A DNA stretch of 64,000 nt from Actinomycetes bacterium (GTDB taxonomy: Bacteria; Actinomycetota; Thermoleophilia; Solirubrobacterales; 70-9), in NCBI GenBank assembly GCA_016861045.1, contig BOKP01000003.1, forward strand, positions 62,001 to 126,000, in the 5' to 3' direction. Position numbers and translations under genes: made by a program. The notes beneath the pieces are model-generated. The model did no database searches. It worked only from the letters and a program-made list of their open reading frames with translations, and was not told the DNA's origin. Each line of letters starts with the position of its first letter. Position 1 is the stretch's first letter. Shown piece after piece: positions 52,773 through 56,134 of the stretch.

Positions 52773-53942
52773 TCAGCGGAGATGCTCGCGCATTCGCTCC
52801 ACCGCCTCCGCGAGCTGCTCGTCGGGGGTCGTCAGCGAGATCCGGAAGAAGCCCTCGCCGCTCGGCCCGTACATCGATCCCGGTGAGATCACGACCGCGG
52901 CCTCCTCGAGGACGTGCTCGCAGAACGAGGCCGAGGTGTACCCGTCCGGGACCGGGGCCCAGACGTAGATCGTCCCCTTCGGCGGCTCGACCGCGACGCC
53001 GATCTCGCGCAGCGCCGCGACGACGAGGTCGCGACGGCGGGCGTAGATCGCGTTCATCTCCTCCCGCGGCCCGTCCGGGCCGTCGAGCGCCGCGGCGCCG
53101 GCGAGCTGGACGGCCTCGAAGAGCCCCGAGTCGACGTTCGTCTTGAGCCGCCAGTAGGTGGAGATCGCGTCGGCGTTGCCGAGGATCGCGGCGCAGCGCC
53201 AGCCGGTCATGTTGTAGCCCTTCGAGAGGCTGAAGACCTCGACCCCGACCTCGTCCGCCCCCGGCGTCGCGAGGAAGCTCGGCGCGACGTAGCCGTCGTA
53301 GGTCGTCTCCGAGTAGGCGTTGTCGTGGACGACGAGGATCTCGTGCTCGCGGGCGAGCGCCACCGCCCGCTCGAACAGGCCGGTGGGAACGACCGCGCCG
53401 GTCGGGTTGTTCGGGTAGTTGAGGAACAGCAGCCGGGCCCGGCGGAGCGCGTCGGAGTCGATCGCCTCGAGGTCCGGGGCGAACCCGAGCTCGGGGAGCA
53501 GCGGCAGGACCTCGACGTCGGCGCCGGCCAGGACGGGGCCGCCGGTGTAGACCGGGTAGCCGGGGTCGGAGGCGAGGGCGACATCGCCGGGGTCGAGGAA
53601 GGCGAAGCAGAGGTTGTAGATGCACTCCTTCGCGCCGATCGCCGGGATCACCTGCGTCCCAGGGTCGATCGTGACGCCGAAGCGGCGGTCGTAGAAGCGG
53701 GCGAGCGCCTCCCGGAGCTCGGCGCGCCCCCGGTTCGACGGGTACCGGTGGGTGCCCGGATCGGCGACCGCGGCCTGCATCGCCGCGACGATGTGCGGGA
53801 AGGTCGGCAGGTCGGGGTCGCCGATCCCGAGGCTGATCACGTCGATCCCGGCCGCCCGCTTGTCGGCCACCTTGCGCTCGAGCTCGGCGAACATGTACGG
53901 CGGGATCGCCTCGAGGCGCTTCGATGGGTCGGTCAGGGCCAA
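52773..53942 (-). CDS. dapL: LL-diaminopimelate aminotransferase-type PLP aminotransferase
   Basis: This 389-residue fold-type I aminotransferase starts RLEAIPPYMFAELERKVADKRAAGIDVISLGIGDPDLPT; it has FLNYPNNPTGAV, HDNAYSETTYDG and the PLP lysine in SLSKGYNMTGWR. These match DapL (DapL2 group), which makes LL-diaminopimelate in one step, and dapF lies 1.3 kb away, but an alanine/aspartate aminotransferase cannot be excluded. The start is a TTG at 53942 with AAAGGAC upstream; a TAGCCT -10 (53990-53985) gives a leader of about 36 nt. Confidence 0.82.
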   Translation of the reverse strand: MALTDPSKRLEAIPPYMFAELERKVADKRAAGIDVISLGIGDPDLPTFPHIVAAMQAAVADPGTHRYPSNRGRAELREALARFYDRRFGVTIDPGTQVIPAIGAKECIYNLCFAFLDPGDVALASDPGYPVYTGGPVLAGADVEVLPLLPELGFAPDLEAIDSDALRRARLLFLNYPNNPTGAVVPTGLFERAVALAREHEILVVHDNAYSETTYDGYVAPSFLATPGADEVGVEVFSLSKGYNMTGWRCAAILGNADAISTYWRLKTNVDSGLFEAVQLAGAAALDGPDGPREEMNAIYARRRDLVVAALREIGVAVEPPKGTIYVWAPVPDGYTSASFCEHVLEEAAVVISPGSMYGPSGEGFFRISLTTPDEQLAEAVERMREHLR

Positions 53943-54144: not shown

Positions 54145-55182
54145 CTACTTGATCCGGAAGGACTTCCTGGCGGGCGTCGCCTCGGGCGCGACCGGGCCGA
54201 CCGCGCGCGCCTGGAACGCGTATCGGCCGGGCCTCAGGTCGCGGTACCTCTTCGGCGAGCGGCAGGTGCGGAAGCGAGGCTTCTTGCCCTTGCGGGTCAG
54301 CGCGCACTGGAGGCGCTCAACGTTCCCGCTCGCCTTGAACTTGAAGCTCACTTTCCCGCTTCCGGCTCTGATCCTGGCGCTCGTGATCCGGGTGTTCGGC
54401 GGGTAGAAGGTGAGCGTGACATCCACGGCGCCGTCCGCGGACTCGGTCGAGCCGGGGTCCTCGGCGGACACCGTGGCTCCGCCATCGACCTCGATCTCGG
54501 CCTCGACCCCCGCCGGCAGGGTCTCGTTGACCTGGAAGCTCCTGTGCTCACGGACCCCGGGCGGGCATTCGCCGCCGCCGCCGACCTCGAACCGCCGCTC
54601 GGTGCCGTCGTCGAACACGACCGTGATCTCGGCGCATTCGTCGCTGTCGGTGTTGGCGGCGCGAAGCGAGCCGGCGAGCTCGATCGGGACCGGGGTCGTG
54701 GACATGAACCATGCATCGAACTCACCGTCCGCGAACGCCACCGGCACCCCGGCGGCGCCGTTGACGTTCTTGTGGACCTCGATGAGGAAGCGCCCTGACG
54801 TGGCGAGGCCCTCGGTCTCGAAGGGCGGCGCAAAGGACGGGGTCACCACGGTCGAGGCCTGGGAGACGTACGCGTCGGCCGTCCCCTCCACGCCCGCGAG
54901 CGTCTCCGGGCTGAGGGCCTCCGAGAAGGTGACGAAGTCATCGCCGCTCTTGTCGTTCGAGAGCTCGTCGAACGAGCTCAGGGCTTGGAAGGTGTCGAGA
55001 AAGGCGCTCGTCCCCTCGACCAGGATCCTCGGCCCCGGCGGCGCCCCGCCCGAGGCCGGCCCGGCGGTCAGCATCGAGATGGCGATCGCGGCCGCGAGCA
55101 GCGAGGCTGCCGCGAGCAGCGGGGGACGTGATGACGCGCCCGCGCCGGACACCCGGCGCCCGATCCCGGATCCCCTGTTCAT
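54145..55182 (-). CDS. Secreted protein with C-terminal Ig-like sandwich domain
   Basis: This 345-residue protein has a long signal peptide (LLAAASLLAAAIAISMLTAG). The middle is acidic with no recognised motif. The C-terminal 80 residues (KVSFKFKASGNVERLQCALT ... FRTCRSPKRYRDLRPGRYAF) match the repeated sandwich domain found on many exported proteins of Thermoleophilia, with one likely disulfide. The ATG has a GGGAGG site 5 nt upstream; TAGGTT (55227-55222) is the likely -10. Function unknown. Confidence 0.78.
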   Translation of the reverse strand: MNRGSGIGRRVSGAGASSRPPLLAAASLLAAAIAISMLTAGPASGGAPPGPRILVEGTSAFLDTFQALSSFDELSNDKSGDDFVTFSEALSPETLAGVEGTADAYVSQASTVVTPSFAPPFETEGLATSGRFLIEVHKNVNGAAGVPVAFADGEFDAWFMSTTPVPIELAGSLRAANTDSDECAEITVVFDDGTERRFEVGGGGECPPGVREHRSFQVNETLPAGVEAEIEVDGGATVSAEDPGSTESADGAVDVTLTFYPPNTRITSARIRAGSGKVSFKFKASGNVERLQCALTRKGKKPRFRTCRSPKRYRDLRPGRYAFQARAVGPVAPEATPARKSFRIK

Positions 55183-55267: not shown

Positions 55268-56134
55268 TCAAGCCCGGCGTCCGGTCGCCCGGATCCCGGC
55301 GGCCAGCCGCTCGACGAACGGCGCGGCCAGCTCGGCGTCGTACACCGGCTCGGCGGTGCCGGTGAGGTGGATGTCGAGGTTGGCGGAGATCTCGACGACG
55401 AGCTCGCCCCCGTCGAGCACGACCGTGATCGGGCTCGGGGCGCCGCGCAGGTGCGCGGCCACGGCGGCGCCGCAGGCGCCGGTGCCCGAGGAGAGGGTCT
55501 CCCCCACCCCGCGCTCGAATATCCGGGCGCGAATCCCGGCGCCCTCGCGGCGCCAGAAGCTGACGTTCGTGCGATTGGGGAAGATCGGCGCCCCCTCGAT
55601 CGCCGGGCCGACCGCGGCGAGGTCGAGCTCCTCGAGTCCGTCGGAGAGCTCGATCGCGCACTGCGGGTTGCCGATCGAGACGTGCTGGAACTCGTGCTCG
55701 ACGGCGCCGACCCCGATCCGGCCGACGCCGTCGGCTCCGCCCTCCGGATAGTCGCGGGAACGGGTCGCGGCGCGTCCCATCGCCACCCGGGCCGAGTCGG
55801 GGCCGGTGATCTCGGGCGTCACCTCCCCCGCCGCGGTCAGGATCGTGAACTCGTCGCGGTCGGTCCACCCGGCGGCGCGCAGGTACAGCACCGCCTCGCG
55901 CACGCCGTTGCCGGACAGCTCGGCCTCGGAACCGTCCGGGTTGAAGATCCGGAGCTCGGCCACGTGGGCGTGCGGGTCGGCGGCCCGCGAGAGCAGCAGG
56001 ACGCCGTCCGAGCCGACGCCGAGGTGCGGCTCGCAGAGGGCCCGTACGCGCTCGCCGGTCAGCTCGAACGGGACCCCGTCGGCCTCGAGCACGATGTAGT
56101 CGTTGCCGAGCGCCTGCCACTTCGCGAATCGCAT
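55268..56134 (-). CDS. dapF: Diaminopimelate epimerase with Ser in place of first catalytic Cys
   Basis: This 288-residue DapF-family protein interconverts LL- and meso-diaminopimelate for lysine and peptidoglycan. Present motifs: KWQALGNDYIVLEAD, FNPDGSEAEL, IGNPQCAIEL, PNRTNVSFWRR and ERGVGETLSSGTGACGAA with the second catalytic Cys. The first one is missing: the canonical CGNG reads SGNG, Ser74, codon TCC at 55915-55913. The ATG has CATACT (56148-56143) 8 nt upstream. Whether it is active as an epimerase is open; genomic context (dapL, recA-miaA-hflX) supports DapF. Confidence 0.88.
   Translation of the reverse strand: MRFAKWQALGNDYIVLEADGVPFELTGERVRALCEPHLGVGSDGVLLLSRAADPHAHVAELRIFNPDGSEAELSGNGVREAVLYLRAAGWTDRDEFTILTAAGEVTPEITGPDSARVAMGRAATRSRDYPEGGADGVGRIGVGAVEHEFQHVSIGNPQCAIELSDGLEELDLAAVGPAIEGAPIFPNRTNVSFWRREGAGIRARIFERGVGETLSSGTGACGAAVAAHLRGAPSPITVVLDGGELVVEISANLDIHLTGTAEPVYDAELAAPFVERLAAGIRATGRRA

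What the first reader, a model, noticed from the sequence alone, without database searches (positions are those of the whole stretch)
55913..55915. DapF lacks its first catalytic cysteine (Ser74 in SGNG)
DapF epimerises by a two-cysteine mechanism. The second Cys (TGACGAA) is intact, but the codon for the first is TCC (Ser). In characterised DapF, Cys-to-Ser at this site severely impairs epimerisation. All other motifs are conserved, so the gene is not decaying. Either this lineage uses Ser/Cys catalysis, or another enzyme makes meso-DAP, or the wall contains LL-DAP.
Basis: partly seen in the sequence, partly recalled or inferred. Interest (0 to 1): 0.6.

Follow-up and report, generated by a model that had tools for sequence, protein, structure and literature searches.

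The report
Cysteine-free DapF of Solirubrobacterales
A whole order of soil bacteria carries, as its only copy, a version of a wall- and lysine-making enzyme in which both cysteines thought indispensable for catalysis are serine, although its members are reported to contain the enzyme's product, so the textbook two-cysteine mechanism probably has a natural serine-based exception.

Summary
The Cys it took for the second catalytic residue (TGACGAA) is a neighbouring, variable cysteine. The true second catalytic position (Hi Cys217) is also Ser (Ser216, ETLSSGTG), and the active-site His159 is Gln158. This is no error and no decay: 151 loci (111 distinct sequences) across four families of the order Solirubrobacterales all have Ser/Gln/Ser, none has Cys at either site, and the substrate-contact residues are kept. 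It is the sole DapF in 32 of 32 genomes checked. Meso-DAP dehydrogenase passes its cut-off in only 3 of 201 genomes of the order. LysA and MurE are present. dapF usually sits beside dapL (LL-DAP aminotransferase). Conexibacter woesei, whose wall is published as meso-DAP, has exactly this enzyme. On a tree Cys/Ser changed repeatedly (at least 7 changes at site 1, 6 at site 2), with S/C, C/S and S/S forms elsewhere in Actinomycetota. Best reading: a working DAP epimerase that uses serine, not cysteine, as acid/base pair, with a co-evolved active site. The function is inferred; nothing was assayed. Engineered Cys-to-Ser mutants of relatives keep under 0.1% activity: a genuine, directly testable mechanistic puzzle.

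The parts
55268..56134 (-). dapF, diaminopimelate epimerase homologue, 288 aa, with Ser/Gln/Ser in place of Cys/His/Cys
   Evidence: TIGR00652 192.4 bits; PF01678; AlphaFold2 pLDDT 93.9; best PDB matches are DapF, Z 36.3 to 9mro
55913..55915 (-). Ser74 (TCC), position of catalytic Cys73 of H. influenzae DapF
   Evidence: Ser in all SQS loci
55487..55489 (-).
   Evidence: Ser in all SQS loci
55661..55663 (-). Gln158 (CAG), position of active-site His159 (GNPH to GNPQ)
   Evidence: Gln in all Solirubrobacterales loci, His elsewhere
52773..53942 (-). dapL-type LL-diaminopimelate aminotransferase, the step that makes the DapF substrate
   Evidence: NF006756 529.9 bits (cut-off 507); TIGR03540 513.9 bits, under its cut-off of 593; match found in the dapF locus in 76 of 85 loci, some cut by contig ends
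56859..57773 (-). miaA, conserved upstream neighbour
   Evidence: own reading of the ORF; match found in the dapF locus in 79 of 85 loci

Best explanation
The gene encodes the cell's only LL-DAP to meso-DAP epimerase. It keeps the DapF fold and the substrate-holding residues, but both acid/base cysteines are serines and the active-site His is Gln. [quoted passage not shown] One would be deprotonated, helped by the helix dipole, by Glu207 or by an altered hydrogen-bond network including Gln158. Shown here: the substitutions, their invariance, the single copy, the absence of Ddh, the dapL linkage, the presence of lysA and murE. Inferred: that it epimerises DAP, and that the serines are the bases.
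For: Invariance of Ser/Gln/Ser over 111 distinct sequences, with the Ser codons themselves varying synonymously, while a single base change would restore Cys from most of them. The substrate-contact residues (Hi N11, N64, N75, N157, N190, E208, R209, S/T219) are all kept; alanine at the equivalents nearly abolishes C. glutamicum DapF (PMC5296763). Exactly one DapF per genome in 32 of 32. Ddh over cut-off in 3 of 201 genomes of the order, all in one genus. LysA over cut-off in own genome and in nearly all checked; MurE with a DNPR motif. dapF and dapL adjacent or overlapping in many loci, including C. woesei. The C. woesei genome, identified by its length 6,359,369 bp, has SQS DapF and a meso-DAP A1gamma wall; the paper says this of all members of the order. 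Repeated Cys/Ser changes at either site, with S/C and C/S forms, as expected if Ser is workable. Precedent in the same fold: a Ser93/Cys236 hydroxyproline epimerase is active (PMC4113996).
Against: Engineered Cys-to-Ser mutants of relatives are nearly dead: PddB under 0.1%, with the like reported for M. tuberculosis DapF (PMC8225329), HisR greatly reduced (PMC11602996). The His is described as essential for epimerase activity (PMC5885031), yet is Gln here. A serine hydroxyl has a far higher pKa than a thiol. No Ser/Ser epimerase was found in the literature searched, and in the proline racemase superfamily a Ser/Thr member is a dehydratase. No activity has been measured for any enzyme of this clade that I could find.
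Confidence: 0.6

Rival explanations
1. The protein no longer epimerises DAP. It binds DAP or a related amino acid, or does a one-base reaction, and an unrecognised, non-homologous enzyme (for example a broad-specificity PLP racemase) makes meso-DAP.
For: Mutational record of Cys-to-Ser in relatives; replacement of the His as well; DapF-fold members with other reactions exist, e.g. Ser/Thr hydroxyproline dehydratase and PhzF.
Against: No second DapF in 32 genomes, no Ddh over cut-off in 198 of 201, one clear alanine racemase in most of 25 genomes. All DAP-contact residues kept and dapF linked to dapL. It would have to hold also for the other Ser lineages, which lack Ddh too.
Confidence: 0.2
2. 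The enzyme is a DAP epimerase but the serines are not the bases: it uses another residue, a bound cofactor such as PLP, or activated water.
For: Serine hydroxyls are weak bases; chlamydial DapF has a PLP-dependent glutamate racemase side activity (PMC5885031).
Against: No new acidic or basic residue is gained by all members among the clade-specific changes, which are A8, S73, Q159, S192, I206, F207, S216, S217, G223 and L260 in Hi numbering. A PLP site was not looked for beyond this.
Confidence: 0.13
3. These organisms use LL-DAP in the wall and need no epimerase; the gene is a relic.
For: None beyond the substitutions; dapL makes LL-DAP directly.
Against: meso-DAP published for Conexibacter woesei and Solirubrobacter; lysA, whose known substrate is meso-DAP, is present; a relic would not keep Ser at both sites and all contact residues over a whole order.
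Confidence: 0.05
4. Sequencing or assembly error in one genome.
For: None.
Against: Same residues in 151 loci from many assemblies, including complete isolate genomes.
Confidence: 0.01

Closest known systems
Diaminopimelate epimerase DapF (TIGR00652; H. influenzae 1GQZ, C. glutamicum 5M47, Anabaena-type 9MRO)
   Same: Fold (Z 36.3, rmsd 2.0 over 267 residues to 9mro), length, substrate-contact residues, place beside dapL, single copy
   Different: Both catalytic cysteines are Ser and the active-site His is Gln
Proline racemase superfamily 4-hydroxyproline 2-epimerase with Ser93/Cys236 (B9JQV3, Avi_0518, PMC4113996)
   Same: Same two-domain fold; a natural Ser at the first catalytic site in an active epimerase
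   Different: Keeps the second Cys; other substrate; such structures share under 20% identity with the window protein
trans-3-hydroxyproline dehydratase with Ser90/Thr256 (B9K4G4, Avi_7022, PMC4113996)
   Same: No catalytic cysteine at either site
   Different: Second residue is Thr in a non-catalytic orientation; a dehydratase, not an epimerase
Laboratory C73S and C217S mutants of H. influenzae DapF (2Q9H, 2Q9J)
   Same: Each reproduces one of the two natural substitutions
   Different: Single mutants of an enzyme whose surroundings were not adapted; such mutants hinder catalysis

Membership tests
DapF diaminopimelate epimerase | Match to the curated equivalog model over its cut-off | tested here: met
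   TIGR00652 192.4 bits, cut-off 114.65
DapF diaminopimelate epimerase | DapF two-domain fold | tested here: met
   AlphaFold2 pLDDT 93.9; the top 18 VIA-align rows are DapF or O-ureidoserine racemase, Z 27 to 36
DapF diaminopimelate epimerase | Two catalytic cysteines (Hi Cys73, Cys217), including the PROSITE signature N-x-[DN]-[GS]-[SENGFT]-x(4)-C-[GI]-N-[GA]-x-R | tested here: not met
   Ser74 and Ser216; NPDGSEAELSGNGVR has S where the signature needs C (signature quoted)
DapF diaminopimelate epimerase | Active-site His of GNPH and Glu of ERG | tested here: not met
   Glu207 kept, but the His is Gln158
DapF diaminopimelate epimerase | DAP-contact residues N11, N64, N75, N157, N190, E208, R209, S/T219 (Hi numbering) | tested here: met
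   All kept in the window protein and in the clade
DapF diaminopimelate epimerase | Converts LL-DAP to meso-DAP | not testable with these tools
   Needs assay or complementation
Proline racemase superfamily Ser-type members | First-site Ser positioned by a nearby Asn side chain (Asn93 for Ser90 in B9K4G4) | tested here: inconclusive
meso-DAP dehydrogenase (Ddh) as replacement | TIGR01921 over cut-off in the genome | tested here: not met
   None in the own genome; 3 of 201 in the order

The most novel reading that the evidence does not exclude
Cofactor-free amino-acid epimerisation by a Ser/Ser pair: a whole bacterial order, and several separate lineages, have replaced the thiol/thiolate pair of DapF with hydroxyls, helped in the order by a His-to-Gln change and other fixed changes, and still make enough meso-DAP for wall and lysine.
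Probability: 0.5. Interest if true: 0.85.

Novelty: new variant of a known kind. Interest (0 to 1): 0.74.

Why it matters
The two-cysteine mechanism is the defining feature of cofactor-independent amino-acid racemases and epimerases, and Cys-to-Ser is the standard way to cripple them. A natural, order-wide, sole-copy Ser/Ser enzyme in bacteria reported to contain meso-DAP either shows that hydroxyls can do this chemistry, with the accessory changes written in the alignment, or exposes an unknown meso-DAP enzyme. It would also mean that thiol-directed DapF inhibitors and the rule 'two Cys = epimerase' do not hold across Actinomycetota.

Tried and rejected
Reading the TGAC cysteine as the catalytic one: rejected by alignment to 1GQZ and to other PDB sequences. 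A second, Cys-containing dapF: none in 32 genomes. Ddh: only genus g4. Alanine racemase paralogue as a general DAP epimerase: most genomes have one copy; C. woesei and C. arvalis have two full-length ones. Viral copies: none found. One script call of Ser for the His site in L255 was an artefact (first GNP match); the printed sequence has GNPH. Five phylum loci (L228, L230, L234, L245, L254) were not caught by the motif script and are left uncounted. No paper describing a cysteine-free DapF was found in the library, which lacks most subscription journals. Families f7 and f11 could not be named.

Full report
What is there. The minus-strand gene 55268-56134 encodes a 288-residue protein that matches the curated DapF model at 192 bits against a cut-off of 114.65 and the Pfam DAP_epimerase family. 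Alignment with H. influenzae DapF (1GQZ) and other solved DapFs puts Ser74 at catalytic Cys73 (codon 55913-55915, TCC) and Ser216 at catalytic Cys217 (codon 55487-55489, TCG). The His of the GNPH motif is Gln158.

It is real and selected. Homologues were sought in about 400 genomes of the class and fetched from named public records. Every locus examined from the order, in four families, has Ser/Gln/Ser: 151 loci, 111 distinct sequences. Named members include Conexibacter arvalis DSM 23288, Conexibacter sp. DBS9H8 and Svornostia abyssi J379. The Ser codons vary (TCC, TCG, TCA, TCT, AGC, AGT) while the residue does not. All residues that hold DAP are kept. Other columns fixed or nearly fixed in this clade but different in Cys/Cys DapFs are Hi positions 8, 192, 206, 207, 216, 223 and 260: the active site looks rebuilt, not decayed. 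(The named loci were found with patterns that contain SGNG or GNPQ, so they are not an unbiased sample; the search was by whole protein and gave the same result in all loci read.)

It is the only candidate. A DapF profile search finds exactly one copy in each of 32 genomes. Meso-DAP dehydrogenase passes its cut-off in only 3 of 201 genomes of the order, all in one genus, and has no match in the window's genome. LysA (412 bits) and MurE (503 bits, with a DNPR motif) are present in the window's genome, LysA also in nearly all relatives checked. Most genomes have a single alanine racemase. A dapL match lies in the same locus as dapF in 76 of 85 loci; in most of those printed it is adjacent or overlapping, as in C. 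woesei.

The wall. The C. woesei genome paper gives a meso-DAP wall (A1gamma) and says this holds for all members of Solirubrobacterales (PMC3035278). Its genome length, 6,359,369 bp, is that of genome G196, whose sole DapF is Ser/Gln/Ser. Solirubrobacter deserti also has meso-DAP (PMC10722151). Caveat from my own knowledge: simple TLC methods may not separate meso from DD.

Evolution. On a maximum-likelihood tree built without the trait columns, the Ser/Gln/Ser clade is one group (support 100). Ser appears elsewhere too: Ser/His/Ser in families f7 and f11 and in f16, Ser/His/Cys in a genus of f9, in f34 and f63, Cys/His/Ser in f15 and f23; the fewest changes are 7 at site 1 and 6 at site 2. 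The 17 genomes checked from these lineages have no Ddh over cut-off. Forms with one Ser suggest that Ser at either site is compatible with life on one dapF. This is inference.

Structure. AlphaFold2 gives pLDDT 93.9; the best solved matches are DapFs (9mro Z 36.3, rmsd 2.0, 267 residues).

How it most likely works. I think it is a working epimerase with two serines as bases (0.6). Against this stands strong bench evidence that Cys-to-Ser in PddB leaves under 0.1%, with the like reported for M. tuberculosis DapF (PMC8225329), that HisR mutants are greatly reduced (PMC11602996), and that the replaced His is called essential (PMC5885031). For it stands the natural Ser/Cys hydroxyproline epimerase of the same fold (PMC4113996). 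Those mutants were made in enzymes tuned to thiols; here the surroundings changed too. The main rival, an unknown meso-DAP enzyme with DapF doing something else, would be as surprising.

Novelty. It belongs to the DapF family by descent, fold and context but fails the defining two-cysteine test, so it is a new variant of a known kind. No description was found in the held library; UniProt and subscription papers were not searchable.

Noticed in passing
window 54145-55182 (-): A 345-aa secreted-looking protein sits between dapF and dapL here (L094 has a gap of similar size), while most other loci read have the two genes adjacent or overlapping.
   Followed up: partly
L219 (G665, another class of the phylum): A third DapF in this genome, Cys/Cys, groups inside Thermoleophilia family f6 on the tree: transfer or contamination.
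   Followed up: no
L083, L086, L091, L092 (family f7): These Ser/His/Ser DapFs also change the Gly after the second motif to Ser (SGTSS, SGSSS, SGTSA) and score weakly, so this is a second, more diverged cysteine-free type.
   Followed up: partly
L063, L212, L213, L215 (one genus of family f9): Natural Ser/Cys DapFs with both TCC and AGY serine codons at site 1, next to Cys/Cys sisters: a good place to study the first step of the change.
   Followed up: partly
G430 (family f34): Small genome with no LysA match, in a genus with a Ser/Cys DapF: perhaps a lysine auxotroph that keeps DAP only for its wall.
   Followed up: no
G254, G365, G383 (genus g4 of the window's family): The only genomes of the order with a true meso-DAP dehydrogenase over cut-off; they keep the Ser/Gln/Ser dapF as well (L014, L027, L016).
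   Followed up: partly
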